From NCBI GenBank assembly GCA_029213065.1, contig JARGPH010000005.1, positions 131,429-195,428 on the forward strand: a stretch of 64,000 nt of DNA, read 5' to 3'. The notes beneath the pieces are model-generated. The model was not told the origin of the DNA. It ran no database searches and saw nothing but the letters and a program-made list of their open reading frames with translations. Made by a program: the position numbers and the translations under genes. Positions 8,737-41,679 of this stretch are shown one piece after another. The number at the start of each line of letters is the position of its first letter. The stretch's first letter is position 1. The DNA is from Verrucomicrobiales bacterium. Its GTDB lineage: Bacteria > Verrucomicrobiota > Verrucomicrobiia > Verrucomicrobiales > DEV007.

Positions 8737-8761
8737 AGCATCCCTGAACTTACCAATCGTC

Positions 8762-12232: not shown

Positions 12233-12244
12233 CCAATTACAGTA

Positions 12245-14874: not shown

Positions 14875-14895
14875 TTTTCGATTCGGTAGCTAATT

Positions 14896-16170
14896 ATGTC
14901 ATCTCTCGGCTGGATAGACTTTAACTCGGAAGACAGTGCCAAGGTGCGCACGGTTCTCGACCTGCTCTCTGACACGGGAGTAATCGATGAACTCGGGATA
15001 GGAGTGATTCGGGACTCGTTCGCGGATCGTATGTTTCCCGGGATCTCCACGGTTCAAACGCGGCCGAAGTATTTCACGCTGACTGCACATCTGCTCAAGG
15101 ATTACGCCGAAAACGAAGTTCCCAAGACTCGTCCTCGTTCGCTGGCGAAGTATCTCGAAGAAGAGGAGAAATGGTGTCGAATTGAGTTCGTAAAGGCGCA
15201 TGGGGAGGGGCGCCAGAATCTGGGGATTATCGGGGGAACTTTTGGAACCGATACGAATCGGGATGTCGTGAGAAAGCCTTCGTCGATCTACTGGACGGGG
15301 TTGCGGCAGTATGGATTCATTTCACCCTCGAATCTCTCTTTGGTCGAGTTTGGTCGGCGACTCGCTGACGGGAAGCACCGCCTTCACGCCTTGCTGAAAG
15401 AAAGCGGGGATGGTGGAGGCGATGACGACGACGCGATGGATCACGAGCACCGGATTCGCATTCATGCTCCGGAGAGGCCTGAAGACTACTGGGAAACACT
15501 GACGATCAATCTGACGAAGGAGGAGGCAGAGTTTTTGCGATTCCAGATTCGGGCAAATCAGCCGGACAGCCTTCTCGGGCAGATCCTGATGGATACAGCG
15601 ATCATGGACGAGATTCTGGAACTCTCCCCTTCGGCCAACTTCGAGGATTTTGCGGCCTTGCCATTTGTTGGCTCGCTAAAAGATGAGTCATTGCGCGTCA
15701 CGGTTCGTCAGGCGCGGGATTTTTGGCGATTGCTCGAAGGGGCGCATGTCCGATATAACATTCAGCTTCAGGAACTGCTCGGGACTTCCGAGAAGTTGGG
15801 AGGCTTTGTTGAGCGGTGGAAAAATTGGCGTGAGTTGCTCCCTCAATATCTCGCGGAGTGGGACACTGGATTTATGTGGAGTGTCGTTCATGAGCGAGGC
15901 AGTATTCCCAAACCGTCTACGAGGCAATTTGTCGAAGAGTGGATCGAGGAATGTTATGCGGGTGCGATCAACGAGTCCCGCTGTGACGCTCTCGTAAAAA
16001 CGCAGGAGCTGCGCAACAAGGGCAAGCGGGCCCGCCTGCGCGGGACCGGGGCGGAGGGGATCAATAGCTGGATTGGTCTCGACGGTCTCAATTACCGCTT
16101 TAGCGAAGTTTATCAGTTGGTTAGGGATATCCGGAACGCTGAGTTGGGAAAGGGGGGCGTAGATGCTTGA
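14896..16170 (+). CDS. DUF6361 family protein
   Basis: 424 aa, starting 21 nt after drmC, which is the widest gap at this end of the operon. The N-terminus (MSSLGWIDFNSEDSAKVRTV, then GIGVIRDSFADRMFPGIST) matches my memory of DUF6361, a family found beside PLD and helicase genes. The body reads as a mixed helical protein without recognisable catalytic motifs; an acidic stretch (DGGGDDDDAMDHE) lies near residue 177. The next gene starts inside this one (8-nt overlap), so expression is linked. Role unknown; by context a substrate-binding or adaptor protein of the DUF6361-PLD-helicase module. Confidence 0.82.
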   Translation: MSSLGWIDFNSEDSAKVRTVLDLLSDTGVIDELGIGVIRDSFADRMFPGISTVQTRPKYFTLTAHLLKDYAENEVPKTRPRSLAKYLEEEEKWCRIEFVKAHGEGRQNLGIIGGTFGTDTNRDVVRKPSSIYWTGLRQYGFISPSNLSLVEFGRRLADGKHRLHALLKESGDGGGDDDDAMDHEHRIRIHAPERPEDYWETLTINLTKEEAEFLRFQIRANQPDSLLGQILMDTAIMDEILELSPSANFEDFAALPFVGSLKDESLRVTVRQARDFWRLLEGAHVRYNIQLQELLGTSEKLGGFVERWKNWRELLPQYLAEWDTGFMWSVVHERGSIPKPSTRQFVEEWIEECYAGAINESRCDALVKTQELRNKGKRARLRGTGAEGINSWIGLDGLNYRFSEVYQLVRDIRNAELGKGGVDA

Positions 16171-21000: not shown

Positions 21001-21435
21001 ATTCGGCAACAGGTCGCCCGGACCTATGGTCCAAAACTCGATCAATGTAATTTTGATCGGGGGAGTGATATTTGGGAGGAGTTGTTCCGCCTTGCGGATC
21101 AAGAGGAGCGGGAGAAAACAGGGAAGTGCGAGCTCATTCCGTTCTGGCACGTGGAGACTGACGCGGATATTCGGATCGAACGAGTGATCCCTCTTTATCC
21201 CTTCAGCCTGGATCGAGGCAGACTTGATCATATTCTCAAGACCCTCGCGATCTACCGTCTCGCCTTCGGTCAGCCGCGGCAGGCGGAACTGGTGGATCAT
21301 CTCCTCGAGCGTAAATTGTCACAGGAGGAGATTCAGCACGTCATGGATACTCTAATGATTAATCTAAGCCCGATCCGGTATGGGGAGGGGAAACGCGGAG
21401 TAGGTGAGCTACCGAGGATGGAGGGGAATCAGTAG
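18037..21435 (+). CDS. SNF2/SF2 helicase of the DUF6361-PLD module
   Basis: 1132 aa. Walker A is MLLADEVGLGKTVVAKGL (~residues 40-57), typical of SNF2-like translocases. Motif II is LYILDEFQRF (~residue 283), with DEFQ where most have DEAH/DExQ; motif III is LLLSATPFK (~residue 321). The C-terminal half carries LLSTTSIGQEGLDFHSYC and the motif VI stretch QREGRINRFKS (~residue 974). A long insertion of several hundred residues separates the RecA-like halves. This is the second helicase of the operon within the window and the third if drmD is counted. It is the last gene; 456 bp without genes follow. Confidence 0.92.
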   Translation: MKHTHLIPYVEDAIDGLKDFQSASVDALHDRLYVENRPCMLLADEVGLGKTVVAKGLIAKVLKERIDRGEKKPFKVTYICSNQVIAKENLRKLNLFPASFSMKPPISRISYLAWAPNERAGKEERQTLLEMNTLTPATSFKVTDGMGNMWERRIVFAALCHDPFFLDQKNGLSWMLKWTVRRMDRYKEELNKSLQWEMRGGLPERFLRLLKRTKIPKHVDAVYGELEGRGSVTLYEAVAAFAEKVDGRTWKGYWDGSNYLASRLRECLIDCCLRYVDADLYILDEFQRFRDLIDEESEEDHARLARKIFFEQSPDTRILLLSATPFKAFTGYDDVERGEDHYQDFRKVLSFLLRNDEVALLKYERHRQALYRQILDLRSGDVAALSGEHREEVERVLRSAMCRTERHSVAADPNALINDLWKDPAHIIPFDAGDIENFKRTDSLARALRTVGYHAGKPVEYCKSALFPLSFLDRYKFKEQLRLHRDNPKVREALRQSKEGWLDLENIDSYKWALSSPEKKTRASGNARLAKLIEQAVGPHGAKLLWVPPSLPYYELEDAYAGSEGFTKTLLFSSWVMVPRMVSTMVSYEVERQTVGNPETVDQQEVEERSYFAKKRHPVPLIRYARRSREGRTQLVNMSNFTLLFPSQILAEIAAPIQNIKHGRSLGELRAQAKEDIERRIEEAGLARFITPGGEGERWYWAAPLLLDRADSEARKSLEQWFEWGQSEAGDEALEEEEKDSDEFKGAKKDHYDFLKACFEDPSLIGLGQPPDDLAEVLADLALGSPAIIAIRSLRRLFGKEADPSSMLTQATRIADEFASLFNKPESIAAVRLSEKHEWYWRMVADYCASGCLQSVLDEYFHLLYGQNVNPQGAVDQLLGAINLNASSINVDSLDTFLSGQPKKMRCHYAAEFGSQRIETDQGQKRASGLREVFNSPFRPFLLSTTSIGQEGLDFHSYCRRIVHWNLPGNPVDLEQREGRINRFKSLVIRQQVARTYGPKLDQCNFDRGSDIWEELFRLADQEEREKTGKCELIPFWHVETDADIRIERVIPLYPFSLDRGRLDHILKTLAIYRLAFGQPRQAELVDHLLERKLSQEEIQHVMDTLMINLSPIRYGEGKRGVGELPRMEGNQ

Positions 21436-24416: not shown

Positions 24417-24935
24417 ATGGCAATCAAACTCATCGGCAACTATGCCAAACGACTCGGCCTCCCCGGCTACTCCAGTCATCAGTTTTCTGTCTCGATTGAG
24501 ACCGAGCTGACTGACAGCGGAGACATCCAGGGCGAGGCCACCCGGATCTATCATCTGCTGCAAGACGCAGTCGATCGTGAGATTCAAATAACCGGCTTCG
24601 TGCCGGATGAAGCATACGGACTCTCGAATGGTTCATCCCATTCCGGTCCCTCTCCTAACGGAAACGGCAACGGCCGCTGGTCATGCTCCGACAAGCAGAA
24701 GGAACTCATCCTGAAGCTGGTCACCGAGCATGACCTCGATCGCGACGTCATAGAGCAAATCGCTCTCGATCGGTTCGGGAGTGGCGTTAAACAGCTCAAC
24801 AAACTCCAGGCTTCCGGCCTCATCGGAGAACTGATCGAGCTGGCCAACACCACGCCCCGGAATGGCTCGAAACCACAAGGCTCGAATGGCCGCAACGGTC
24901 ACCGGGCTTCTAACGGGAAAGGAGGTCGCTCATGA
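24417..24935 (+). CDS. Element protein paired with PDDEXK nuclease, 172 aa
   Basis: ATG preceded by GAAAGGA at a reasonable distance. The N-terminal ~65 residues (KLIGNYAKRLGLPGYSSHQF, then SVSIETELTDSGD) look like a small alpha/beta domain. A Ser/Gly/Asn linker follows, then a helical domain (SDKQKELILKLVTEHDLDRD ... QASGLIGELIELA) of the type found at the C-terminus of some phage recombination proteins. A second Gly/Asn/Ser-rich tail ends the protein. The stop overlaps the nuclease start (ATGA), so the two are probably made together and may act on the same DNA substrate. No exact family name can be given. Confidence 0.65.
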   Translation: MAIKLIGNYAKRLGLPGYSSHQFSVSIETELTDSGDIQGEATRIYHLLQDAVDREIQITGFVPDEAYGLSNGSSHSGPSPNGNGNGRWSCSDKQKELILKLVTEHDLDRDVIEQIALDRFGSGVKQLNKLQASGLIGELIELANTTPRNGSKPQGSNGRNGHRASNGKGGRS

Positions 24936-25744
24936 TCGCGGCCCCTTTGCCTGCTCTGGCACCGCCCAGCGATCCTGAGTCTGGGCCCCTCGACTATGTC
25001 TCAGCCTCCCGGCTGAAGTGTTGGCAGGAATGTAGGCTCAAGTTCTACTTCCGCTATGTCGAGAGGATCACCTCTCCCACCAACCCGGCGCTCTTTGTCG
25101 GCAAGGCCGTGCATCATGTTCTCCAGCAGTGGAACCTCGCCCGATGGCGGGGGGAGGCTGCAGATGCCGAAACCCTCAAGCCGGGCTTCTCCGCCTATTG
25201 GGAGGACGCGCAGGCTGAGGAGGAAATCGACTGGTCCGGCAAGGAGGATGAGCACCGACAGAAGTCGTGGACCATGCTCGAACATTACTTCGAGCACACG
25301 CCCATTCCTTTGGAGGAAAAGCCACAAGCCGTCGAGGTCATCGTGGATCGAGATCTCGAAGCGCATGGCTTGCCACCACTGCGGGGAGTGATCGACCTGG
25401 TTCGAGCCGGAGGGTGCATCGTTGATTTCAAGACGAGCGCCCGCACTCCGGCCCAAAAACTCGCTGGCCATCTCCACGAGACCCAGCTCACCACCTACGC
25501 CTTGCTCTATCGTGAGGCGACCGGTGAAGAGGAAAGCGGCTTCGAGCTGCAATTCCTCATCAAGACAAAGCAGCCCAAGTTGATCGTGACCAGCCTGCCC
25601 CCGGCGAAGCCGGATCAGGTGCGTCGCTTTCTCCATCTCATGGAAAGCCTTGTCGAAGGAGTCGAGCGGGAGGATTTCATACCGTCGCCCGGCCTGCAGT
25701 GCAGTTACTGCGATTACCAAACTCAGTGCCAGTCCTGGCGCTGA
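24932..25744 (+). CDS. PD-(D/E)XK superfamily nuclease with likely Fe-S cluster (RecB/Cas4-like)
   Basis: 270 aa. The motif order is that of the PDDEXK_1 family: SASRLKCWQECRLKFYFRYV near the N-terminus, VGKAVHHVLQQW, GVIDLV (D155), IVDFKT (D165, K167) and the ETQLTTYALLY helix with Gln/Tyr. A Cys at the N-terminus (CWQEC) and three near the C-terminus (C-x2-C-x5-C, in LQCSYCDYQTQC) match the spacing of AddB/Cas4-type 4Fe-4S nucleases. Expected to be an exonuclease for recombination or replication of the element. Overlap with the upstream gene and DUF932 downstream fit a phage/plasmid recombination module. It is not Cas4 by context, as there is no CRISPR locus. Confidence 0.85.
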   Translation: MIAAPLPALAPPSDPESGPLDYVSASRLKCWQECRLKFYFRYVERITSPTNPALFVGKAVHHVLQQWNLARWRGEAADAETLKPGFSAYWEDAQAEEEIDWSGKEDEHRQKSWTMLEHYFEHTPIPLEEKPQAVEVIVDRDLEAHGLPPLRGVIDLVRAGGCIVDFKTSARTPAQKLAGHLHETQLTTYALLYREATGEEESGFELQFLIKTKQPKLIVTSLPPAKPDQVRRFLHLMESLVEGVEREDFIPSPGLQCSYCDYQTQCQSWR

Positions 25745-25772
25745 TTCATCCCTAACCAAAACAGCAGGACGA

Positions 25773-25805
25773 AAGGGCCGGTTGCCGACGAGGTGACCGG
25801 CCCTT
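25773..25805. repeat. Perfect 10-bp intergenic hairpin
   Basis: AAGGGCCGGT (25773-25782) and ACCGGCCCTT (25796-25805) pair perfectly around a 13-nt loop in the gap between the nuclease and DUF932 genes. No T run follows. It sits in the same relative place as the structures at 24346 and 26642, and an A/C-rich leader then precedes the next ATG. Confidence 0.7.
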
Positions 25806-25831
25806 CCTGCGTACAAACCCAAACTAACATC

Positions 25832-26608
25832 ATGATACAAACCCTTGAACCTATCACTCTCCCGAGGCCCGCAGCCACGAAGGGCATGCTCCTTCACTGC
25901 GGTGCTGAAACCGTCGACCGCGAGGTCGTCTTCGACACGGCCACTCCCATGGCCACCGAAACCTGGTATCCTTTGCCGCATCGCGATCTCATTCACGAGG
26001 TCGAGGGACAGCTTGAGTATGCCGGGTTTCAACTCACCGCCGAATCACACGCTCTCAGTCATGAGGGTGATCGCTACTTTGGCGTGTTTGAAGTGAGTCT
26101 TCCTGATCGTTCGATCGAGGACTACCAGTGGATTGTCGGGCTGCGTAACAGCCATGACAAATCCTTCCCCGCCGGCCTTGTCGCCGGGACCCATGTCCTC
26201 TGCTGCGACAACATGGCCTTCACCGGTGAGGTGAAGATCAGCCGCAAGCACACCCGCTTCGCGGTCCGGGATCTTCGTCACCTCACGGCACGTGCTGTGG
26301 GTCAACTCGGCGACCGGTTCCGAGGTCTCGATGAGCGCATTGCCGCCTATCGGGATCGCTCACTGACCAATCCGAAAGCTCACGACCTCATCGTCAAAGC
26401 GATCGATTGCCGGGCAGTCACCGTTACCCAGATCCCCAAGGTGCTTGAGGAGTGGAGAACGCCGTCTCATGACGAGTTCTCTCCCCGCAATGCCTGGAGT
26501 CTCTTCAATGCCTTCACCGAGGCACACAAGGGACTCAACCCCAACACCATCGTCGCCCGGAGTCAGGCCCTGCATGGGCTCTTCGACGGGCTCGTTGGTC
26601 TCAACTAA
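25832..26608 (+). CDS. DUF932 phage/plasmid protein
   Basis: 258 aa from ATG 25832 (MIQTLEPITL); the frame opens further upstream only through the hairpin region. Segments typical of DUF932 include TWYPLPHRDLIHEVEGQLEY, DRYFGVFEVSL, WIVGLRNSHDKSFPAGLVAG and VLCCDNMAFTGEV. The family is common on plasmids, phages and ICEs; its biochemical role is not settled. No SD is seen; the leader is A/C-rich. It lies between the nuclease and two small membrane proteins. Confidence 0.85.
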   Translation: MIQTLEPITLPRPAATKGMLLHCGAETVDREVVFDTATPMATETWYPLPHRDLIHEVEGQLEYAGFQLTAESHALSHEGDRYFGVFEVSLPDRSIEDYQWIVGLRNSHDKSFPAGLVAGTHVLCCDNMAFTGEVKISRKHTRFAVRDLRHLTARAVGQLGDRFRGLDERIAAYRDRSLTNPKAHDLIVKAIDCRAVTVTQIPKVLEEWRTPSHDEFSPRNAWSLFNAFTEAHKGLNPNTIVARSQALHGLFDGLVGLN

Positions 26609-26641
26609 ACCCCAACCCAATCCTCCCGGAAGTGGGAACGA

Positions 26642-26678
26642 CGAAGCCGGTTTTGTCTCTCACGGCAGATCGGCTTCG
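26642..26678. repeat. Intergenic hairpin of the element module
   Basis: CGAAGCCG (26642-26649) pairs with CGGCTTCG (26671-26678) over a 21-nt loop between DUF932 and the lipoprotein-like gene. The bases ACGACGAAGCC repeat those beside the terminator at 24346, linking the intergenic structures of this cluster. Confidence 0.6.
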
Positions 26679-26703
26679 CCCGTTTTCGGGAAAACCCAAA
26701 CCT

Positions 26704-27030
26704 ATGAAATCACATCCTATGAAAATCATCCTCATCACCCTGGCCTTTGCCTTGCTGTCCGTCACCTCGACGAGTTGCAGCCTCAAGGCCGAAGAACCTC
26801 CGGCAACCGTTGAAACCTCTCCGAAGCCTGACCCGGTCAAGATCCTCGAAGAGCGGATTCAGACCGAGCGGGAGCTTCGTGTCGAAGCCCAGCAGGAAGC
26901 CTCGGATGAGGCGCTCCTACGGGAACGGTGGCAGCTCGCATCCATTGCCCTCTGCCTCCTTGCCCTGGTCGCCTTCCTTGGCGGCACCACCATCGGATCC
27001 CGCGGAAAACGTCATGCAGCCATTGCCTAA
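26704..27030 (+). CDS. Small lipoprotein-like membrane protein
   Basis: 108 aa; two in-frame starts (26704 and 26719) lie close together. The N-terminus is a signal sequence (IILITLAFALLSVTSTSC) with a Cys that could be a lipid attachment site. A charged, probably coiled segment (PDPVKILEERIQTERELRVE) follows, then a C-terminal membrane helix (LASIALCLLALVAFLGGTTI). This layout recalls small phage or conjugation accessory proteins such as spanin-like proteins, but that is only a possibility. The last 17 nt overlap the next gene. Confidence 0.6.
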   Translation: MKSHPMKIILITLAFALLSVTSTSCSLKAEEPPATVETSPKPDPVKILEERIQTERELRVEAQQEASDEALLRERWQLASIALCLLALVAFLGGTTIGSRGKRHAAIA

Positions 27031-27535
27031 ATCCCCCTTCGAGGAAGAGGACTTGGCGGGATGGCAAGATCACGCTCCCGTTGCATCCGATCGACGCTCC
27101 AGGCCCCTGCGAATGCTCGGGCGTTTCTGGAACCCGGCTCCCGTGCCTCCACCCCAAATCGATCCCCATCTCGATGAATTGAGTTGGCCGGAGCGATCCG
27201 GAGAAGTGATCAGCTTTGCCCTGCTCTCCTTGGAGTGTTGGCTGAGCCGGGGCGGGGTGCTTCGTGAATGGCTGCGACTCAATCTCTGGCTCGCGGTCAT
27301 GTTCACCTTGTTCGCAGTGCTCCTGGTTCCGCCGGTAACGGCTCTCCTCAAGGGCGCGGTCGAATGGTCCGCCTTAGGCAGTGACATCGTCGAGAACGTC
27401 ACTACTGCGATCATGCGGCTTCCGCCAGTGGTGCTCGCTCTCGCGACGCTCCTGCTCGTGATCAAGCTGCTACAACGTCACTGGCTTCGCCGTCGGCGAC
27501 AGTCTTCACCCTATGAGGAGGAGCGCTATCAATAA
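27014..27535 (+). CDS. Small integral membrane protein
   Basis: 173 aa from ATG 27014, which overlaps the previous gene in another frame. The N-terminal ~85 residues are soluble and Pro-rich. Two membrane helices are visible: LWLAVMFTLFAVLLVPPVTA and VVLALATLLLVIKLLQ. The C-terminus is strongly basic (RHWLRRRRQSS). The function is not recognisable. Its coupling to the lipoprotein-like gene suggests that the pair forms one envelope-associated unit of the element. Confidence 0.6.
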   Translation: MQPLPKSPFEEEDLAGWQDHAPVASDRRSRPLRMLGRFWNPAPVPPPQIDPHLDELSWPERSGEVISFALLSLECWLSRGGVLREWLRLNLWLAVMFTLFAVLLVPPVTALLKGAVEWSALGSDIVENVTTAIMRLPPVVLALATLLLVIKLLQRHWLRRRRQSSPYEEERYQ

Positions 27536-27564
27536 CCCCATAACCAAACCAAAAACAAACAACC

Positions 27565-29019
27565 ATGAAATCCACCCCATCCCTGGCGGTCAGCGCGGGC
27601 GACTTGCGTCCAGCCCTGACCGCACTCGGTAAGGTGAGAAAGAGAGGCAAGGCAGTTCCTGAAGAACTGCAGCATCTCCAAGTCGAGACGGTGGGCCGGA
27701 GTTCGCTCCGGCTCACCGCGACCGACGGCGAGACCTTTCTTTCCCTCACCCTGCCGACCATCTCACCGGAGAAGAGAGAACCGTTTCTGGTTCGCTTCGA
27801 TCGTCTCCAATCGTCCCTCCGGGGCGCCCGAGTCGACGAGGCTATAGCTCTCCGACCGGTGAAGACTCCGCCGGCGTCTCTGTATCCCCAGTGTCCGATT
27901 GTCCGGAGCAAACCCATCGAACTCGGCCCTGCCGCAGTCGAGGCGTTTCATCACGCCTTTGGCTCAACCAGTCAGGATCCGAGTCGTTACGTGCTGCAAG
28001 GGGTTCACCTCGATCCGAAAGGAAAAGGAGGAACCCGCTTCATCGGCACCGATGGACGGCATTTGTTCCAGAGTCATCTATTCCCAGTCAAAGGCCTGAA
28101 GGAATCGATCATTCTCCCGGCAGTGGCGGCTCTCGCCAGTCCCGCGTTGAAGAAGGCTGATACCTGGAAACTCCGTCTTTCTCAGGGCAGAAAGTGCGCT
28201 TCCCCGATCTTTCAGATTCAGGGAGCCAATTGGTGCCTGACCGGCAAGCTGATCGAGGGAAACTATCCCACGTATCAGCAGGTCATCCCGCCCGACTCGG
28301 GCTTCAAAGCCCGGGTCACCATCCCCGTGGATCTCGGCAATGAGTTGATCAGAGTTCTCCCGGGGCTACCCGGTCGAAAACTTTCGAACCACCCCGTCGC
28401 CCTTCGTCTCGCGGAGTCATCCGTGAGCGTCCTCGCAAGACCGACTGACAGCGCTCCGTGTGAGGAACTCATTCTGTCATCGGCTCAGAAAACGGGTGAG
28501 AACCACACTGTGTTCGTGAACCGGGATTATCTGTCTCACGCTCTGAGATGTGGGATGACAAAGATTGAGATAATCGATGAGAACACTCCTATGAAATGCA
28601 CTGGCGACTCCGGTATTCTGATCATTATGCCGGTTCGATCCCTCGGAGAAGTGAAGGTCGGACATTCGCGAAGTTTTGGTCCCGGTCGGACTGAGAAAAT
28701 CTCTGAGATAAAACGTGAAAGTCTCCGATCAAAACTGAGACCTCGCCGTGAAAAACTGAGAGCCAAACCCGAATCGCCGAGATTCAAAAAGAGAACCCCA
28801 ACCCCCATACTGATGAAGAAACCATCCCCTGATCAGAAAACGGCTGAGAATCCCGATGAGAAAATCGCGGAGATTAAATCAGCCCTCAAAGTGGCCGCCT
28901 CCGGGCTCGCCGAGTTGACCGCCTGCCTCCGGGCATCGCGTCAGCATCAACGCCAGACCGAGAAAGAAGTTCGGTCGGTGAAGAAGACTCTGCGGAGTCT
29001 TCGACAGGTCGAGTTGTGA
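27565..29019 (+). CDS. Divergent DNA polymerase III beta sliding clamp with extra C-terminal tail
   Basis: 484 aa. The first ~360 residues follow DnaN through all three clamp domains: LQVETVGRSSLRLTATDGE (domain 1), SRYVLQGVHLDPKGKG and FIGTDGRHLFQSH (domain 2), EGNYPTYQQVIP (~residue 230), FVNRDYLSHAL, and ILIIMPVR (~355), where cellular DnaN ends with VMPMRL. About 125 further residues form a basic Arg/Pro/Lys-rich tail and a terminal coiled-coil-like helix (EIKSALKVAASGLAELTACL). No SD is seen; the leader is A/C-rich. A clamp beside a recombination nuclease and DUF932 suggests that the element replicates or repairs its own DNA with a dedicated clamp. Sequence divergence and context argue against this being the housekeeping copy. 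Confidence 0.85.
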   Translation: MKSTPSLAVSAGDLRPALTALGKVRKRGKAVPEELQHLQVETVGRSSLRLTATDGETFLSLTLPTISPEKREPFLVRFDRLQSSLRGARVDEAIALRPVKTPPASLYPQCPIVRSKPIELGPAAVEAFHHAFGSTSQDPSRYVLQGVHLDPKGKGGTRFIGTDGRHLFQSHLFPVKGLKESIILPAVAALASPALKKADTWKLRLSQGRKCASPIFQIQGANWCLTGKLIEGNYPTYQQVIPPDSGFKARVTIPVDLGNELIRVLPGLPGRKLSNHPVALRLAESSVSVLARPTDSAPCEELILSSAQKTGENHTVFVNRDYLSHALRCGMTKIEIIDENTPMKCTGDSGILIIMPVRSLGEVKVGHSRSFGPGRTEKISEIKRESLRSKLRPRREKLRAKPESPRFKKRTPTPILMKKPSPDQKTAENPDEKIAEIKSALKVAASGLAELTACLRASRQHQRQTEKEVRSVKKTLRSLRQVEL

Positions 29020-29042
29020 GCGGCACTACCACAGGAGTTCCT

Positions 29043-29078
29043 GCCCCGGCCCCCGGGTCGGGGCGGGGCTCTTTTTTT
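29043..29078 (+). terminator. Strong intrinsic terminator after the clamp gene
   Basis: A GC-rich stem (GCCCCGGCC with GGTCGGGGC, one G-U pair, loop about 4 nt) is followed by GGGGCTC and seven T (29072-29078). It closes the 24.4-29.0 kb gene set and separates it from the TIR genes. Confidence 0.85.
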
Positions 29079-29364
29079 AGCTATCAGGTGTCTAAAGCTC
29101 TATTTTGAGCCTTACCCTTCCAGCAGGATGGAATCTCTTTACCGCCCCTGTTCGCCTGAGCCACCCCCAACGGAAGCGGAGCCGACGGGCTAAGGCTGCT
29201 TTCTGTCTAATTACGCGAGTTCACTGTTGCCAAAGCGAACTCAATCCTTGTAAAACCGGGAAACATATACGGATTTCAACAAATAAGGAATGCGTGTTAG
29301 ACCGAATTTTACTATTACTTTGTTATTTCACACTTCCGCTTAATACACTGTTAGGCTTCGAAAC
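29079..29364. repeat. Gene-free leader of the TIR cluster with attC-like inverted repeats
   Basis: No gene is supported. GTCTAATTACGC (29205-29216) is nearly inverted by GCGTGTTAGAC (29292-29302), about 75 bases apart, and GAGTTC/GAACTC make a small hairpin between them. A separate GTTAGGCT (29350-29357) lies 7 bases before the first TIR start, and its exact inverse AGCCTAAC (30506-30513) follows that gene's stop. GTTRRRY/RYYYAAC pairs are the core sites of integron attC elements, but a complete attC cannot be drawn. The region also has to hold the promoter of the TIR genes. Confidence 0.35.
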
Positions 29365-30492
29365 ATGCCACTTGTAGTCAGACGCATAGTTGCAATCGCA
29401 GGCGGTCTCATTCTTCCGCTCGTCGCATTCCTCTGGGCCGTTCACGGAAGTGGCTTCGCGGGGAACCTATTCTCCCACAGTCACGGACTCCGATCAGAGA
29501 TTGGTCCCGATGCGATTTATAAGAAATTCGCGGATGTTTATACTTTCTGGGGAATCTTCGGGATCTCCACTGCCGGGGGATTCGCGTTCGCATTTCTGTA
29601 TTGGGATCGTCGCCCAGTTCAATGGAAGGTCCAGTTATGCTTCTGGCTATTCTTCTTTCTAATTCTACCACTTTCAGTGCTTAATTATTGGAGTGCCGAT
29701 ACCTATGTAAGCCGCTCAAAACAGGCTCTGATTGACCTAGTCCTCGTTTTTCTCGGAGTCGTCGTAGTCCTCCTGATTGCTCGTATTAAGGCCAAGACTA
29801 TTCCGGCCAGAGTGCTCCAGTGGATGGCTGTCTATTTCATTGCTTTGCAAGCTGTGCTCATTCCAGCGATATACGCATCACTTTGGTGGTTAAACTGGCA
29901 AGAGGCCATCTCCGCAGCCAACACCAAAGATTGGACTCCCGGTTGGATTAGCGTGACTGGGGCCATATTGGCCGTATTTGGTGCAACTTTTCTTACCAGT
30001 CGATTCCCGAACCGCGTCAGCGTGCGGCCCCCGCGAAGTGTGTTTATTTCATATCGCCGAAAAGACTCCGCGGAGGTGGTTGGGCGCATATACGACCGGC
30101 TTTGTGATCAGTTCGGAGCTGAAGCTGTATTCAAGGATGTCGATTCAATTCCGCTGGGAGATGACATTCACAAGCATCTTGACGCCGCTGTTCGACATGC
30201 GGAGGTATGCATAGCGATAATTGGGCCCAATTGGATGCCGCCAGACCAGAGCGGAGCACGAGAAAAACCGGATTTCGATTTTGTTCAGCAAGAGATCGAA
30301 TGCTCCTTGAGCCACTGCATCCCGATTATTCCCGTGTTTGTCCACGGAGGCAAATTTCCACCTGCCTCTGAGATCCCGAACAGTCTGCATTCTTTGTCAC
30401 GCATTAACGGATCGATTGTTCGACCTGACCCTGACTTTGAAACTGATATGGCACGTCTTGTTCGCGGAATTGAGAGAACCCACTCCGGCTAA
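29365..30492 (+). CDS. Polytopic membrane protein with C-terminal TIR domain
   Basis: 375 aa. About six membrane helices fill residues 5-215, for example VAIAGGLILPLVAFLWAV, LCFWLFFFLILPLSVLNYW and LVLVFLGVVVVLLIARI. A TIR domain follows from ~222: SVFISYRRKDSAEVVGRIYD, then DVDSIPLGDDI, EVCIAIIGPNWM and FDFVQQEIE, whose Glu lies where bacterial TIR NADases carry the catalytic Glu. The TIR end would face the cytosol. TIR domains in bacteria commonly cleave NAD+ or make cyclic ADP-ribose signals during phage defence. First of four TIR genes on the same strand. Confidence 0.88.
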   Translation: MPLVVRRIVAIAGGLILPLVAFLWAVHGSGFAGNLFSHSHGLRSEIGPDAIYKKFADVYTFWGIFGISTAGGFAFAFLYWDRRPVQWKVQLCFWLFFFLILPLSVLNYWSADTYVSRSKQALIDLVLVFLGVVVVLLIARIKAKTIPARVLQWMAVYFIALQAVLIPAIYASLWWLNWQEAISAANTKDWTPGWISVTGAILAVFGATFLTSRFPNRVSVRPPRSVFISYRRKDSAEVVGRIYDRLCDQFGAEAVFKDVDSIPLGDDIHKHLDAAVRHAEVCIAIIGPNWMPPDQSGAREKPDFDFVQQEIECSLSHCIPIIPVFVHGGKFPPASEIPNSLHSLSRINGSIVRPDPDFETDMARLVRGIERTHSG

Positions 30493-30602
30493 CCGGCAAT
30501 CAATGAGCCTAACGATCTGCGGCACCACAACTCGGTCCCGCGTCGACTCGAAATGTCTTTCCTGATTTCGATCCCTGACTTACAGTTCCACCAGCGCATA
30601 CA

Positions 30603-31433
30603 ATGGAAGGTAAATACGCATTCGCCAGCTACAGCCATCAGGACGCCGATTCCGTGATGCCGCTTGTCGAGTCTCTACTCGATCGCGGCTTTCGAATCTG
30701 GATTGATCGGATGCAGTTAGTTCCTGGCAAGGATTGGAGTTCCGAGATTTCTGGCGCGCTCGGAGACGCTAGAGCTCTGCTGTGGTTTGCCGGAAGGCAC
30801 ACTAGCACGTCTAAATGGATGCAGGCAGAGGCCAGAGCCATGGTCTCTGCGGGGGAGGACCAAACCATTATTCCTGTTCTTGTCAAAGGTGCTGAACCAG
30901 AAGAGCTGCCTTTATTTCTACGTAATCGCCAGTGGGTAGACGCACGCTCTGATACAGAACAAGCGATAGGGCAACTTAGCGAGGCCTTGGTGCACTATCT
31001 CGGCGCCCCGGCTGAAGAGCCAACCGAGAAGGTTAGGGCAAAAAACAAGGGTTACGTATTTATCAGCTATTCAGTTGAGGACGCAGGATTCCTCGATGAC
31101 CTGAAGGAATTTTTGAGAACGAAAGGCTACGGCTATTGGGATTTCCATGAAAACAAACGAGATTACCAGGCTCAGTTTCATCTTGAACTAGAGTCGATCA
31201 TTCGAGACTCCCGGGCAATGCTATGTATTGTAACTCCTTCATGGAAGCATTCGCGCTGGGCGCCACGTGAATACTTGTTTACTGAAGACATCCGAAAACC
31301 TATTTTTCTACTTAGGGCGGAGCGAATGGAGCCAACTCTATTGATAGCCGGGTCCTCGTATATCGATTTTGTAGATGATCGCGACGGCGCATTTAGAGAA
31401 CTCGATCGCGAATTGGCAACGGCCGGATTATGA
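30603..31433 (+). CDS. Tandem TIR-TIR protein
   Basis: 276 aa made of two TIR domains and little else. The first covers residues ~4-125 (YAFASYSHQDADSVMPLVES, RIWIDRMQLVPGKDW, KWMQAEARAM). The second covers ~150-276 (YVFISYSVEDAGFLDDLKEF, YWDFHENKRDYQ, RWAPREYLF). Both keep a Glu in the helix equivalent to the NADase Glu (AEAR, PREY). The second has lost most of the usual D-E-D loop after the second strand, so one half could be structural. No membrane segment. A 110-nt gap separates it from the first TIR gene. Confidence 0.85.
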   Translation: MEGKYAFASYSHQDADSVMPLVESLLDRGFRIWIDRMQLVPGKDWSSEISGALGDARALLWFAGRHTSTSKWMQAEARAMVSAGEDQTIIPVLVKGAEPEELPLFLRNRQWVDARSDTEQAIGQLSEALVHYLGAPAEEPTEKVRAKNKGYVFISYSVEDAGFLDDLKEFLRTKGYGYWDFHENKRDYQAQFHLELESIIRDSRAMLCIVTPSWKHSRWAPREYLFTEDIRKPIFLLRAERMEPTLLIAGSSYIDFVDDRDGAFRELDRELATAGL

Positions 31434-31618
31434 ACATCAAGACGCCGCTGATCAACCCGCTTCAAAATGCCCCCTTTTTCTCGAACGCTTATTCCTGTTA
31501 CGACGCTACGCTCCTCGTTGTGGGCACCAACGATTGAACATTCATCCAAAAGATGAGAGGAACTCACACTTTAGATTGGATAGCCTAGTCTTCACGTACA
31601 AACTTATCTGACAGAAAA

Positions 31619-33385
31619 ATGCCGAGTGAATTCTATTGTTTCATTTCCTACCGAAGATCGGACAATCAGTCTCCCGGTCGTCGATGGGCATACTGGCTCC
31701 ATAGCCAGTTGGAGAGCTTTCCAGTGCCAGAGTCCTTGGTAGGTTCACGAAACAGACGCGGTGAGATAATACCAGACCGCATACGCCCGGTATTCCTCGA
31801 CGAAAAGGACTTGGGCGCAGATCCAAACTTAAGAGAAGCAATTCACAAAGCTCTCCAAAGCTCGAAATTCCTAGTAGTAATCTGTTCCCGACGCGCAGCA
31901 GGTGCTGATTCAGTATATGTCAAAGAAGAAATCAGAATGTTCAAGGCACTGGGCGGTGGTAACCAGATTTTTGCCGTTCTAATCGATGGCAACCCCACGT
32001 CCGGTGACCAAGGCGGATCGTTTCCGGAGCCGCTTTGTTTCAGGGTCAATGAAGTCGGAGAGGTAGACCACACGGCCCCACATGAGCCGCTTGCCGCCGA
32101 TTTTCGGGTTTCCGATCAAGGCGAAGAGGGGTGGGCTAGTTTAAGCGCATACGAAGGTGTACTACGAGGAGAGGGTGTTCTCCCTGAAAACGAGATCCAG
32201 CGACTAACGTCGATGTATCGCGACCGTCAGAAACAAGGGTTATTGCAGATACTGTCAGGGCTTCTTGGTGTAGGTTTGAGAGAACTCGTTGAACACGACG
32301 AGTTGCACATGGCTCGGAAAAAGTTTCGTCAGCGCCTCACGCGTGTTTTAGCTGCCTTTCTACTTTTCGCGGCTATTTCCACCGGGGTTATTTGTATACA
32401 GATAAAATTTTCAGAGAAGCAGGCTCATTCACTTGCTTCCACGCGGCGTGAACTCAGCTCTACCCACGAAAGCCTGGCCTTAATGCACGTGGACTTTGGG
32501 GAATTTGAAGAGGCTTTCGCATCGCTCGAACGTTCGGTTGCAATAAATGGGAAAATATACGGTGAAGAAGAATCGGTCGAAGCAGTGAAGGCGGTTGCCG
32601 AGACTTATGCGAAGCTCGGGAATTCGGCTCTGCAAGAGGGCATTGATGATATTGCGAAGAAATTCCTTTTGAGAGCAGGTGATCTATTCTCTTTCGTATA
32701 CGAAAAGGAAGAAACTCCAGCCAATGGTTTGGCGCTTGCGGGAGTATTTCAGGACCTTGGCAAATCTCCGTTACGGCAAGGCAATTTGAGGCAAGCTGAA
32801 GAATACTTCTCCCGAGCGAAATTCATCGCGGAGAAAATTTTAGCTGAGGATGACAACGCAGCTGCCTTGGGCTCAGTAGCGTCGTCAAACAGGTTGCTCG
32901 CTAATGTGGCAGAGATAAGCGGCGACATTGAAAAAGGTAAGAGGCTACTGGAAGAGTCTTTGCGTGCGAATGAGATCCTTATTTTGGAGGAACCCAGCAA
33001 TTTCCAGTATCGACGTCAACTCTCAGAGGATTATTCAAGTTTAGCTGCGCTTGCAATAAAGCAGCTGGACTATGGTTCAGCGGTGGAGAAACTTGAAAGG
33101 GCGTTGGATGTTCGATCACAGTTGATCGCGTCAGATCCTAGTTCCAATGATGACCGGAAATCTTTGGCCGTGGCTCATGCTAACCTGGGATCTGCCTACC
33201 AAGAGATGGGGGGCGGAGGCAACCTGCCGCGAGCTGAGAAGCAGTATGAATTGGCGCTAGAAATATTGGAAACTACTTTCTCCGAGAACCCGGAACTTGA
33301 GGAGTTGCAAGACACTTTAAATCAAAACCTAGAGCGGATAAGAAATCTAGAAAGGAAGGAAAAGGGCAGAGGACCCGACCGCTAA
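31619..33385 (+). CDS. TIR - transmembrane - TPR protein
   Basis: 588 aa. The TIR domain spans residues 1-~165 (FYCFISYRRSDNQSPGRRWA, VFLDEKDLGADPNLREAI, LVVICSRRAAGADSVYVKEE); the Glu in KEEIRMF is in the expected place. A linker with a helical region leads to one membrane helix near 242-262 (VLAAFLLFAAISTGVICIQI). The C-terminal ~310 residues are helical repeats of TPR type (ASLERSVAINGKIYGEEESV, AEEYFSRAKFIAEKIL, AVEKLERALDVRSQLIA). With a single helix, TIR and TPR parts lie on opposite membrane faces, which suits transmembrane sensing. Gap of 185 nt upstream and 45 nt downstream. Confidence 0.87.
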   Translation: MPSEFYCFISYRRSDNQSPGRRWAYWLHSQLESFPVPESLVGSRNRRGEIIPDRIRPVFLDEKDLGADPNLREAIHKALQSSKFLVVICSRRAAGADSVYVKEEIRMFKALGGGNQIFAVLIDGNPTSGDQGGSFPEPLCFRVNEVGEVDHTAPHEPLAADFRVSDQGEEGWASLSAYEGVLRGEGVLPENEIQRLTSMYRDRQKQGLLQILSGLLGVGLRELVEHDELHMARKKFRQRLTRVLAAFLLFAAISTGVICIQIKFSEKQAHSLASTRRELSSTHESLALMHVDFGEFEEAFASLERSVAINGKIYGEEESVEAVKAVAETYAKLGNSALQEGIDDIAKKFLLRAGDLFSFVYEKEETPANGLALAGVFQDLGKSPLRQGNLRQAEEYFSRAKFIAEKILAEDDNAAALGSVASSNRLLANVAEISGDIEKGKRLLEESLRANEILILEEPSNFQYRRQLSEDYSSLAALAIKQLDYGSAVEKLERALDVRSQLIASDPSSNDDRKSLAVAHANLGSAYQEMGGGGNLPRAEKQYELALEILETTFSENPELEELQDTLNQNLERIRNLERKEKGRGPDR

Positions 33386-33430
33386 TCGAGGTGGGTCACT
33401 CCGGCCTTCGGCCAAGCAAAAGATGCGCGA

Positions 33431-34489
33431 ATGAAAATCTTCATAATCGGTGGCGTCACGACGAAAAGTGACAGTCCCAAATTCAACTCGGAAATGGAGT
33501 TGTTGAGGACTTCCATGAGATCTCTCGGAGCGGAGTTGGTAGCTCACGGTCACGAGATAGTAGTGTGCAGCCCTTTCCCGGACTCTGCGGACTATCACGT
33601 TCTTAAAGGAGTGGCCGAGTGTGAGGGTGCCGCCGATGCGCTGATCTCTATCCATTACCCAGAAATCTCGTCTGTCGACGCCGCGCTGAAGGAACTGCTT
33701 TCAGGGGCCAAGCAACTTAATGTAAAGCGGTTTCCGTGTCCGGGTTCCGGTGAGTCTTCTTCAGCTGAGTCATTTCAGTATGCATGGCTTTTTGCCCAAC
33801 TCAACGCGATGGATTCAAGCGCCGGCGTAATTACTGTCGGAGGAAAGCCCAGTGGTTCTCTGAACCTGCTTTTCCATCTCGCAGATGCGAAGAATAAGAG
33901 CGTCTTGCCTCTGACTTTTTTAGGTGGTGCAGCTCAGGATCACTTTGATGTAAAGTATTGGGACTTGCAGGACGTTATCCCCGATGACATTGCGAAGCTA
34001 AGAGATCCAGCGTCGATCATCGAGGTCCCGAGTATTCTAGAGGCCCTTCTTTCGGGGAGACCTACCGATGAAGAACGATCATTCTTCATTAGCTACGCTA
34101 GGGCCCGACCAAACGAGGCGGACTATGTCGAGACACTTTTACGACGTCGAAATCATACCGTCTATCGGGACGAGGAGCACTTTGAGCCATCCTCCGATAC
34201 TCAGACTGAGATCATCAAGAACATCAAGAGGGCAAATGTGTTCGTTGCCCTTTGGTGCAAAGAGTATGCTTGTAGCCCTTGGTGTTTTGATGAGTTGGAA
34301 ATGGCTCTTGAGCGCAAGGAGAAGGGCTTGGCGGAGCTGTGGATTTTCTGCGTAGACGAAACCAGAATTGTTCCAAGGGCAGCCCGAGATCTAAATTACT
34401 ATCCAGCAACTTCGCGCGAGAGTCTGGAGGGCAAGATTCTGTTTCTGCTCAACAAGCTTGAGCAAGACATTGATCCGGTGCAACAGTGA
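33431..34489 (+). CDS. SLOG-TIR fusion protein
   Basis: 352 aa. The N-terminal ~200 residues look like a SLOG/LOG Rossmann-type nucleotide-binding domain: MKIFIIGGVTTK at the start, AADALISIHYPE, and GVITVGGKPSGSLNLLFHLA followed by KSVLPLTFLGGAAQ. The TIR domain is residues ~213-340: SFFISYARARPNEADYVETL, VYRDEEHFEPSSD, VFVALWCKEYACSPWCFDEL. SPWCFDELE is a canonical TIR NADase Glu motif. In Thoeris the SLOG domain of ThsA binds the signal made by a TIR protein; here sensor-type and enzyme-type domains sit in one chain. No SIR2 domain is present. Last gene of the TIR row; the next gene converges on it. Confidence 0.85.
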   Translation: MKIFIIGGVTTKSDSPKFNSEMELLRTSMRSLGAELVAHGHEIVVCSPFPDSADYHVLKGVAECEGAADALISIHYPEISSVDAALKELLSGAKQLNVKRFPCPGSGESSSAESFQYAWLFAQLNAMDSSAGVITVGGKPSGSLNLLFHLADAKNKSVLPLTFLGGAAQDHFDVKYWDLQDVIPDDIAKLRDPASIIEVPSILEALLSGRPTDEERSFFISYARARPNEADYVETLLRRRNHTVYRDEEHFEPSSDTQTEIIKNIKRANVFVALWCKEYACSPWCFDELEMALERKEKGLAELWIFCVDETRIVPRAARDLNYYPATSRESLEGKILFLLNKLEQDIDPVQQ

Positions 34490-40289: not shown

Positions 40290-41495
40290 CTAAGCAGGGC
40301 TCAAATCAAACCACTCCTTTGCAGCCTTCTCGGAAACCGGCCTTCGATAATTCTTCACGATAATCTCGGGACTGTTTCCCATCTCGGAGGCGAGCTTCTG
40401 GGTGTCCTTGATCAGAGCGAGCCGGTAGGAGCCATAGCTGTGACGGAGGACATCCTCTGGCCACTCGTCGAAGAATTCCATCTTCTTGTGCTCACTGGTC
40501 ATCATTTCGTGAGGGCGCTTGAACTGCGCAACCAGTCCGGTCTCCTCTTGGAATGGCTCCAGCCATGCCTTGAGGTTCGGGTGCAGAGGGATGAACCGAT
40601 CTCTGAGGGTCTTTCTTGCCTGAGAGGCGTTAATCTCGATGTAGCTGTCTTCCCAGTGGATGTTCTCCCAAGTGATCCGGCGCGCTTCACTGGGACGCAA
40701 TCCGCCAAAGGCTGAGAGTGCCAGATAGGGCGTTAAGTCGTTCCGCACGTGAGAGAGAATCTTCTTCATCGTCTCTGGATCAAAGATCGAAACCGACTCA
40801 ATTAATTCGGGCCTCTTCTCCATTTTCTCCGCTTCCGTCTCAAGGTTGGGGAGGAAGCGTTGCTTTCGACACCAGCGGAAGAAGGTGATCAGAGCAGCCC
40901 GGCAATTGTTGGAATAGCGAGGTGAGTAATCCTGCTTGATCAACCACGCCTCGATCTGATTGTGGGTGACGTCAGATAGAGGACACTGAAACGCCGCGGC
41001 AAACCTCCCTACATGCAGTTTTACGGTCTCAACGTTACGCTTGCTGGTTCGATTCTCGGCGCGCTCCAGATAAACGTCGTAGGCCTCCGTAACCGTTTTC
41101 TCATGGAGAAGATCCGGCGAGTGGGACAGAAAGAAGCGAACCGCATCGGAGAGACTGGTTCGTCTGTCGAGCGCTTCATAGGCGGTCGTGTAATCCTGAA
41201 CGGCTTCTCCCAATGAAATCCCGATAGGTTGCAGCTTCTTGATTGCCGAGAGATAGGCGACTTTGTCCTCTCCCCGAAGTTGCTGACTTGGAGCCATCCC
41301 CAAGTTGAGCTTACGAAGAACATCCTCAGCCTCGACCCGGGCTTTCTTGTAGTCGCTTCGAATCAACCGCTGCCTCTTGCCGTCCTCATACCAGGACACT
41401 GTAAAGGCTTCGTAGCCGTTCACGGGCGTCGCGTAAATCCTAACCGATACGCTTCCATCCTTGATGGTTTGAGGAAACGTCTTCGGCTTTTTCAT
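40290..41495 (-). CDS. Tyrosine recombinase/integrase of the genomic island
   Basis: 401 aa. The N-terminal arm- and core-binding part includes an SAM-like region (VETVKLHVGRFAAAF, then DVTHNQIEAWLIKQDYSPRY). In the catalytic part the first Arg is in SAFGGLRPSEARRITWE, the box II segment is EDVLRHSYGSYRLA (Asp where many have the first His), and the nucleophile Tyr is in VKNYRRPV (Y383). The gene starts 110 bp from the 3' end of tRNA-Glu, the usual placement for an integrase that uses a tRNA gene as attachment site. Palindromic and direct repeats lie directly upstream of the start. Confidence 0.92.
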   Translation of the reverse strand: MKKPKTFPQTIKDGSVSVRIYATPVNGYEAFTVSWYEDGKRQRLIRSDYKKARVEAEDVLRKLNLGMAPSQQLRGEDKVAYLSAIKKLQPIGISLGEAVQDYTTAYEALDRRTSLSDAVRFFLSHSPDLLHEKTVTEAYDVYLERAENRTSKRNVETVKLHVGRFAAAFQCPLSDVTHNQIEAWLIKQDYSPRYSNNCRAALITFFRWCRKQRFLPNLETEAEKMEKRPELIESVSIFDPETMKKILSHVRNDLTPYLALSAFGGLRPSEARRITWENIHWEDSYIEINASQARKTLRDRFIPLHPNLKAWLEPFQEETGLVAQFKRPHEMMTSEHKKMEFFDEWPEDVLRHSYGSYRLALIKDTQKLASEMGNSPEIIVKNYRRPVSEKAAKEWFDLSPA

Positions 41496-41573: not shown

Positions 41574-41600
41574 CAAAAAAACCGCCTCTATGAGGCGGTT
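41574..41600 (-). terminator. Intrinsic terminator of tRNA-Glu
   Basis: AACCGCCTC (41580-41588) and GAGGCGGTT (41592-41600) pair around a 3-nt loop. Read on the minus strand the stem is followed by a T run (A at 41574-41579 on the plus strand), just past the tRNA 3' end. Confidence 0.85.
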
Positions 41601-41604
41601 AAAT

Positions 41605-41679
41605 TGGCGACCCGTACGGGACTCGAACCCGTGTTACCGCCGTGAAAGGGCGGTGTCCTAACCACTAGACGAACGGGTC
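41605..41679 (-). tRNA. tRNA-Glu (anticodon TTC), CCA encoded
   Basis: On the minus strand the sequence starts GACCCGT and ends ACGGGTC-G-CCA, giving a 7-bp acceptor stem. The anticodon arm CCGCC-CTTTCAC-GGCGG presents TTC, and the T arm CGGGTTCGAGTCCCG is canonical. With the encoded CCA it is 75 nt. Its 3' end faces the integrase gene, so the 3' part is the likely attachment site of the island to the left. I found no second copy of the 3' end in the window. Confidence 0.95.

What the first reader, a model, noticed from the sequence alone, without database searches (positions are those of the whole stretch)
29365..34489. Row of four TIR genes with four different architectures
Membrane-TIR, TIR-TIR, TIR-TM-TPR and SLOG-TIR follow each other on one strand with gaps of 45-185 nt and no other gene between, making five TIR domains in 5.1 kb. 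All keep a Glu at the expected NADase position. The mix of membrane-bound, sensor-like (TPR) and nucleotide-binding (SLOG) parts suggests a signalling cascade that does not match Thoeris or other named TIR systems I know.
Basis: partly seen in the sequence, partly recalled or inferred. Interest (0 to 1): 0.75.

Follow-up and report, generated by a model that had tools for sequence, protein, structure and literature searches.

The report
TIR defence genes stacked as cassettes
Four bacterial immune-type (TIR) genes sit in a row partly because a gene-capturing system (an integron) stacked them inside a defence island, and the last gene belongs to a family repeatedly found beside other TIR genes, so it probably receives their chemical alarm signal.

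Summary
The four ORFs, five TIR domains, gaps and catalytic-position Glu residues are real. Two results change the reading. (1) The g1-g2 and g2-g3 gaps match attC sites of this genome's own integrons (E 3e-5, 1.2e-8; nothing comparable in 135 kb of the contig, 663 kb of other loci or 2.7 Mb of simulated sequence). The sites are decayed; these genes arrived as integron cassettes, so adjacency alone shows no cascade. The row lies in an ~80 kb tRNA-Glu island with 11 TIR genes (own HMM). (2) g4, SLOG-TIR, has full-length relatives in several phyla. In 9 of 9 loci of its stand-alone type other TIR genes lie within 10 kb; 6 of 9 hold a ThsB-family protein (Thoeris sensor), 5 of 9 a TIR-SLOG2 protein. 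Its N-terminal half has the fold of the ThsA signal-binding SLOG domain. Relatives of these partners (ThsB-like, TIR-SLOG2-CHAT, patatin-like) lie elsewhere on the same island. Most likely g4 is a ThsA-like receiver and NADase fed by TIR-made ADP-ribose signals, and g1-g3 are exchangeable TIR modules. A new variant of a known kind; no activity was tested.

The parts
29365..30492 (+). g1: membrane segments plus C-terminal TIR (375 aa)
30509..30597 (-). attC remnant between g1 and g2 (covariance model 30501-30627, reaching past the g2 start; decayed)
30603..31433 (+). g2: TIR-TIR protein (276 aa)
31434..31542 (-). attC remnant starting at the base after the g2 stop (covariance model 31426-31547)
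31619..33385 (+). g3: TIR-TM-TPR protein (588 aa)
33431..34489 (+). g4: SLOG-TIR protein (352 aa), candidate signal receiver and NADase
29350..29356 (+). GTTAGGC, possible cassette boundary before g1 (the motif alone is not above chance in the window)
29039..29068 (+). strong terminator-like hairpin separating the row from the upstream gene
40290..41495 (-). tyrosine integrase of the island
41593..41634 (.). right end of the island: 42-nt exact direct repeat of the tRNA-Glu 3' end; the other copy lies at contig C67:92791-92832, outside the window
41605..41679 (-). tRNA-Glu (insertion site)

Best explanation
The row is in part a small, decayed integron cassette array (attC remnants follow g1 and g2; none was found at g3-g4 or after g4), sitting in an ~80 kb tRNA-Glu defence island with 11 TIR genes. 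g4 (SLOG-TIR) is most likely a Thoeris-like receiver: its ThsA-type SLOG half binds an ADP-ribose-derived signal made by other TIR proteins and switches on its own TIR half, which consumes NAD+ and stops phage growth. The signal makers would be TIR proteins of the row or, more likely, the ThsB-like protein and other TIR proteins about 46-66 kb away on the same island. g1 and g3 would be TIR enzymes with their own sensing parts (membrane, TPR), and g1-g3 exchangeable modules. Shown by computation: genes, domains, folds, attC remnants, island ends, recurrent neighbourhood. Inferred: signal binding, NADase activity, partnership and phage defence.
For: attC: a model from 9 of this genome's attC sites gives, at E<=1, only two matches in window plus L014-L016, the g1-g2 and g2-g3 gaps, in cassette orientation. 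Genome-wide the g2-g3 site is found at E 1.1e-5. A sequence-only profile of 24 sites gives E 1.2e-8 and 3e-5; next best 8.8 bits in 135 kb of the contig, 11.8 bits in 20 Markov-simulated copies, 7.6 bits in 663 kb of other loci. Three integron integrases over cut-off exist on other contigs, none on this one. Neighbourhood: 9 of 9 stand-alone SLOG-TIR loci have other TIR genes, against 0 of 14 loci of the other SLOG-TIR group and 2 of 10 g3-like loci (Fisher p 1.2e-6 and 7e-4). ThsB_TIR over its Pfam cut-off in 6 of 9 loci, TIR plus SLOG cluster2 in 5 of 9. None of 28 neighbour proteins scanned matched SIR2 or macro at E<=0.01 (for one of them only its best 25 families were shown). The island carries a ThsB-like protein 64% identical over 186 aa to the one in the Paenibacillus SLOG-TIR locus, a patatin-like homologue, and TIR-SLOG2-CHAT. 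Fold: ThsA SLOG with bound gcADPR, Z 16.3. The TIR half matches Cat1, a CARF-TIR NADase effector, at E 2e-10.
Against: No activity, expression or phage data. SLOG fold matches are equally good to DprA and TM1055 (Z about 16), so the fold does not fix the ligand. ThsA residues that coordinate 3'cADPR (R371, K388, E403, PMC10022894, passages) could not be mapped. In the same loci the TIR-SLOG2 protein is a rival receiver: in L063 it matches the Sir2- and TIR-associating SLOG family STALD over its cut-off, which g4 does not. The ThsB-like gene lies ~46 kb from g4. attC stems and boxes of both remnants are broken. No attC was detected at g3-g4, after g4 or before g1. Neighbourhood controls were chosen afterwards, flanks differ in length (L068 is a 3 kb contig), and 2 of the 14 control loci (L067, L079) did not show their own TIR.
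Confidence: 0.5

Rival explanations
1. The four genes are independent single-gene defence or stress proteins that piled up; g4 senses a metabolite on its own and needs no partner TIR.
For: Cassette stacking explains adjacency of g1, g2 and g3. The row is not conserved as a unit. The other SLOG-TIR group shows no other TIR gene nearby in 14 loci.
Against: The stand-alone SLOG-TIR group lies near other TIR genes in 9 of 9 loci from several phyla, with the same partner families recurring.
Confidence: 0.25
2. The row is one operon and one signalling cascade: membrane TIR, TIR-TIR, TIR-TPR, then SLOG-TIR.
For: Same strand; no terminator-like site in the three gaps and a strong one before g1; similar GC of about 0.50 in all four.
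Against: attC remnants in two gaps; g4 in no other of 387 genomes of the phylum at E<=1e-5.
Confidence: 0.1
3. The TIR-SLOG2 protein (here TIR-SLOG2-CHAT), not g4, is the receiver of ThsB-type signals; g4 only travels with it.
For: TIR-SLOG2 occurs in 5 of 9 SLOG-TIR loci, one copy matching STALD over cut-off, and the island copy carries a CHAT effector domain.
Against: 4 of 9 SLOG-TIR loci showed no TIR-SLOG2 protein in the stretch held, L026 and L062 among them with ThsB.
Confidence: 0.1
4. The proteins serve regulation or cell-envelope signalling rather than phage defence.
For: g3-type TIR-TM proteins are common in the phylum and I know of no tested function (recalled).
Against: Located on an island with DISARM/Zac-type genes and ThsB-like, CHAT and patatin-like proteins.
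Confidence: 0.05

Closest known systems
Thoeris (ThsA SIR2-SLOG or TM-macro with one or more ThsB TIR proteins)
   Same: SLOG fold with Z 16 to ThsA bound to gcADPR; ThsB-family TIR proteins near SLOG-TIR relatives and on the same island; several TIR proteins per receiver, as described for Thoeris (PMC11204291 and PMC12578639, passages read).
   Different: Effector half is TIR, not SIR2 or TM-macro; the ThsB-like gene is ~46 kb away; TIR partners vary from locus to locus.
Cat1, the CARF-TIR effector of type III CRISPR (PMC12162218, start of abstract in search listing)
   Same: Ligand-sensing domain joined to a TIR that degrades NAD+; TIR halves match by profile at E 2e-10.
   Different: Sensor is SLOG, not CARF. 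CRISPR loci were not searched for here.
SLOG-TIR immune systems predicted by comparative genomics (Burroughs et al. 2015, recalled; not held; SLOG-TIR systems named in PMC7824862, passage read)
   Same: The domain pair itself was proposed as an immune system.
   Different: The recurrent ThsB / TIR-SLOG2 / patatin neighbourhood and the integron link were not in the passages I could read.
Integron cassettes as phage-defence stores (Darracq 2025, Kieffer 2025, Getz 2025, as described in PMC12409362, passages read)
   Same: Defence-type genes carried as small cassettes with attC sites.
   Different: Here the attC sites are decayed and the genes lie inside an integrase-borne tRNA island, TIR genes only.

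Membership tests
Thoeris | ThsA effector with SIR2-SLOG or TM-macro next to ThsB | tested here: not met
   No SIR2 or macro match among the row and six nearby genes. The STALD search of the whole genome found none, but its control rang nowhere, so that part is inconclusive.
Thoeris | ThsB-family TIR protein present | tested here: met
   ThsB_TIR over cut-off at C67:118556-118861 (59.2 bits) on the island; g2 and g3 also pass its cut-off but TIR_2 fits them better.
Thoeris | SLOG domain that binds a cADPR isomer | tested here: inconclusive
   Fold matches the ThsA SLOG with bound gcADPR, but also other SLOG proteins; binding and pocket residues not tested.
SLOG-TIR proteins | N-terminal SLOG plus C-terminal TIR over full length | tested here: met
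   22 loci of genome contigs and 17 plasmid records, each covering at least 80% of g4; folds of both halves.
integron cassette array without integrase (CALIN; definition as in PMC12444791, passages) | at least two attC sites, no integron integrase beside them | tested here: met
   Two sites, in two of three gaps; integron integrase matches lie on C2, C32, C48 (over cut-off), C69 and C73 (below), none on C67.
integron cassette array without integrase (CALIN) | intact attC with both recombination boxes and stems | tested here: not met
   Stems and end boxes broken in the alignments. Folding energy is a weak test: z 1.48 and -0.74 here, but true sites of this genome gave -2.64 and -0.35. Filed as relic, not as an active array.
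TIR NADase | Glu at the catalytic position | tested here: met
   5 of 5 row domains.
TIR NADase | NAD+ cleavage or cyclisation | not testable with these tools
   needs an enzyme assay

The most novel reading that the evidence does not exclude
A further class of Thoeris-like immunity in which a SLOG-TIR protein is the common receiver and executor for several exchangeable TIR sensors, and in which integrons supply new TIR sensors as cassettes to an island that already holds the receiver.
Probability: 0.28. Interest if true: 0.82.

Novelty: new variant of a known kind. Interest (0 to 1): 0.64.

Why it matters
If right, it adds a receiver type to Thoeris-like signalling, explains why TIR genes gather around SLOG-TIR in several phyla, and shows how new sensors can be plugged in by cassette capture. 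The Paenibacillus filicis locus (L061), with a SEFIR/TIR, a ThsB, a TIR-SLOG2 and a SLOG-TIR gene in line on one strand, gives a compact set that can be tested in laboratory strains.

Tried and rejected
A strict attC search by R''/R' boxes found nothing in the contig or in the real integrons, so the script was too strict and its zero was not used. GTTRGGC boxes alone are not above chance (12 against 10.5 expected). Plasmid blastn with the row gave no match; by protein, g3 hit 10 plasmid records and g2 3, none over 80% of the query. Viral contigs gave no SLOG-TIR relative. One joined-query genome search was of limited use: at most two candidates per genome were scored and g1 was not seen even in its own genome, so g4, g1 and g2 were searched again singly; g3 was not. 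No SLOG match to ThsA by sequence. Rfam at its gathering thresholds gave only the tRNA. Thoeris with patatin: one paper listed. 'Type III Thoeris': none held. Integron with TIR and phage defense: four papers listed, none about TIR cassettes by title (listing only). Most subscription-journal papers are not held.

Rows dropped: L079 (frame broken) left the SLOG-TIR alignment after one search was rejected; L067, L073, L077, L026 and L027 were not put in (19 rows). In the other SLOG-TIR group 12 of 14 loci show a longer protein; in L067 and L079 my HMM found no TIR at all, so their type is by position in the hit list. The g3-like control used the 10 best-scoring of the 45 other genomes with a match. 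TIR genes of L058 and L077 were not scanned for ThsB_TIR, apart from one L077 protein.

The STALD match adds a rival receiver, so the odds of the best explanation went from 0.55 to 0.50, of the novel case from 0.30 to 0.28 and of the one-operon rival from 0.12 to 0.10.
Full report
Observation. Pfam finds TIR_2 in each and twice in g2; g3 has TPRs. g1 has five hydrophobic stretches and g3 one. SLOG in g4 is not seen by Pfam but is clear from the model. The Glu at the TIR catalytic column is present in 5 of 5 row domains and 12 of 12 island domains.

Setting. A 42-nt exact direct repeat of the 3' end of tRNA-Glu lies at window 41593-41634 and at contig C67:92791-92832, with a tyrosine integrase beside the right copy. 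The row is therefore inside an ~80 kb island. My iterated TIR HMM finds 11 TIR genes with 12 domains on it (one, 288 aa, only at 9e-5). Of 12 TIR_2 matches in the genome 10 are on this stretch. The island also holds DISARM/Zac-type genes.

Cassette origin. The genome has three integron integrases over the cut-off, on contigs C2, C32 and C48. Nine attC sites from C48 and C2 gave a covariance model. On window, L014-L016 and the three integron loci it returned 27 matches at E<=1: 25 in the integron loci, 12 of them on C32, which was not used for the model, and two in the window, at 31426-31547 and 30501-30627, the g2-g3 and g1-g2 gaps. In the C48 array the longest ORF is on the strand opposite to the model in 8 of 9 intervals between neighbouring sites (by eye), so the minus-strand hits here fit plus-strand cassettes. 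Genome-wide 56 sites passed E 0.01, a lower bound because 150 of 975 first-look candidates were scored; the g2-g3 site was among them (E 1.1e-5), the g1-g2 site was not. A sequence-only profile of 24 sites gave 31434-31542 (E 1.2e-8) and 30509-30597 (E 3e-5); the next match in 135 kb had 8.8 bits, 20 Markov-simulated copies reached 11.8, and 663 kb of other loci 7.6. With the covariance model 40 loci (740 kb, L013-L016 of the own contig included) gave one match at E<=1, 13.7 bits; the weaker window site has 21.8. Against this: both remnants have broken stems and boxes, and nothing comparable was found before g1, between g3 and g4, or after g4. Folding energy does not help: z 1.48 and -0.74 for the remnants, -2.64 and -0.35 for two true sites. 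I read them as attC relics. Another TIR gene of this genome, on C50 (L024:4703-5587, minus), starts 10 nt from an attC.

SLOG-TIR family. Full-length relatives occur on a Sinorhizobium plasmid (44%) and, at 27%, on Klebsiella-type plasmids, in the one locus looked at within a longer protein, and in 22 loci of genome contigs. Eight of these 22 plus the Sinorhizobium plasmid are stand-alone SLOG-TIR proteins like g4: Westiellopsis, Azotobacter, Rhizobium, Paenibacillus, a Ruminococcus MAG, Saprospiraceae, Chitinophaga, Flavilitoribacter (there frame-broken) and Sinorhizobium. All 9 have other TIR genes in the stretch held. Of the other 14, 12 show a longer protein with an extra N-terminal part (not scanned) and 2 showed no TIR at all; none has another TIR gene (one, L068, is only 3 kb long). 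Of 10 loci around g3-like genes 2 had further TIR genes. Fisher p values 1.2e-6 and 7e-4 treat loci as independent, and the controls were picked afterwards.

Partners. ThsB_TIR (PF08937) over cut-off occurs in 6 of the 9 loci: L059, L061, L062, L063, L064, L026. A ~700 aa TIR plus SLOG cluster2 (PF18163) protein occurs in 5 of 9: L059, L061, L063, L077 by Pfam and L064 by homology in two ORFs. In L063 this protein also matches STALD, the Sir2- and TIR-associating SLOG family, over its cut-off, so it is a rival for the part of receiver. A patatin-like protein occurs in L026 and L060 (Pfam below cut-off, L060 by homology). Some loci also have Nmad2, 5-hmdU kinase and thymidylate synthase genes. 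In Paenibacillus a SEFIR/TIR protein (NB-ARC below cut-off), ThsB, TIR-SLOG2 and SLOG-TIR follow each other on one strand.

Same partners on this island. At C67:114-120 kb lie a TIR (180 aa), a ThsB-like protein (186 aa, 64% identical over its full length to the Paenibacillus one), a patatin-like protein (972 aa, 31% to the Sinorhizobium one, Pfam just below cut-off) and a weak TIR. At C67:99.3-103.5 kb lies a 1192 aa TIR - SLOG cluster2 - CHAT protein (the TIR part below its Pfam cut-off) next to a 188 aa TIR; related pairs lie close together in L063 and L064. So relatives of the partners that SLOG-TIR has elsewhere are present on the island, about 46-66 kb from g4.

Fold of g4. The AF2 model has mean pLDDT 88.5 and pTM 0.64, from 19 rows. 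Residues 1-208 align with BcThsA bound to 1''-3'gcADPR (Z 16.3, rmsd 2.9, 169 residues) and with other SLOG proteins such as TM1055 and DprA at similar Z, so the fold does not fix the ligand. Residues 214-346 align with TIR of SPARTA (Z 17.5), AbTir and SARM1. C46, S47, P48, G137 and G138 in the SLOG half and E288 in the TIR half are invariant in 19 of 19 rows.

Unit or not. The row is not conserved. At E<=1e-5, own genome counted, g4 was found in 1 of 387 genomes of the phylum, g1 in 5 and g2 in 24; the matches of g1 and g2 outside the own genome cover about one TIR domain. g3-like TIR proteins are common. No terminator-like site was found in the three gaps and a strong one lies before g1, so joint transcription is possible.

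Mechanism. By analogy with Thoeris, where several ThsB proteins can feed one ThsA (PMC11204291, PMC12578639, passages read), and with Cat1, a sensor-TIR NADase (PMC12162218, abstract start in listing), I propose that SLOG of g4 receives an ADP-ribose-type signal and that its TIR half then destroys NAD+. The partner may be in the row or elsewhere on the island. Binding, catalysis, partnership and defence are inference.

Novelty. SLOG-TIR systems were named before (PMC7824862, passage read; PMC9503650 speaks of TIR-SLOG-based antiviral systems, passage read; Burroughs 2015 recalled). Integron cassettes with phage-defence genes are known (PMC12409362, passages read). In the searches (listings, and the passages named) I did not find SLOG-TIR as a ThsB partner across phyla, or TIR genes delivered as cassettes into a tRNA island.

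Noticed in passing
L141:1313-4891 (C67:99313-102891, minus): 1192 aa TIR - SLOG cluster2 - CHAT (caspase-like) protein on the same island; an unusual three-part immune-type protein.
   Followed up: partly
L015:14453-19482 (C67:114453-119482, minus): Group of TIR 180 aa, ThsB-like 186 aa, patatin-like 972 aa and weak TIR 288 aa genes, the first three with homologues in the Sinorhizobium SLOG-TIR locus.
   Followed up: partly
own genome, contigs C2, C32, C48 and others: At least 56 attC sites at E<=0.01 on many contigs and three integron integrases over cut-off: an integron-rich genome.
   Followed up: partly
L024:4703-5587 (contig C50): Another TIR gene starting 10 nt from an attC site, probably a cassette too.
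   Followed up: partly
window 8714-21435: DrmA, DrmB, PLD protein, DUF6361, ZacB, ZacC in a row: DISARM/Zac-type defence operon, with an MmeI-like methylase at 2090-6673.
   Followed up: no
window 31-864 and L016:9048-11561: ORF matching only the C-terminal quarter of DrmD, overlapping an 837 aa upstream ORF that was not scanned: drmD may be split.
   Followed up: no
window 24932-29019: PDDEXK_1 nuclease, DUF932 and a sliding-clamp-like protein (Pfam below cut-off) upstream of the row: possibly the island's replication or recombination module.
   Followed up: no
L015:3551-5797: 748 aa protein with lipase and abhydrolase domains next to the 188 aa TIR gene on the island.
   Followed up: no
L061:4080-11023 (Paenibacillus filicis): Four-gene line SEFIR/TIR, ThsB, TIR-SLOG2, SLOG-TIR, the neatest example of the neighbourhood.
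   Followed up: partly
L083:9064-19000 (genome G307): g3-like 1556 aa TIR protein beside a TIR-SLOG2 and a third TIR gene in a same-order genome.
   Followed up: partly
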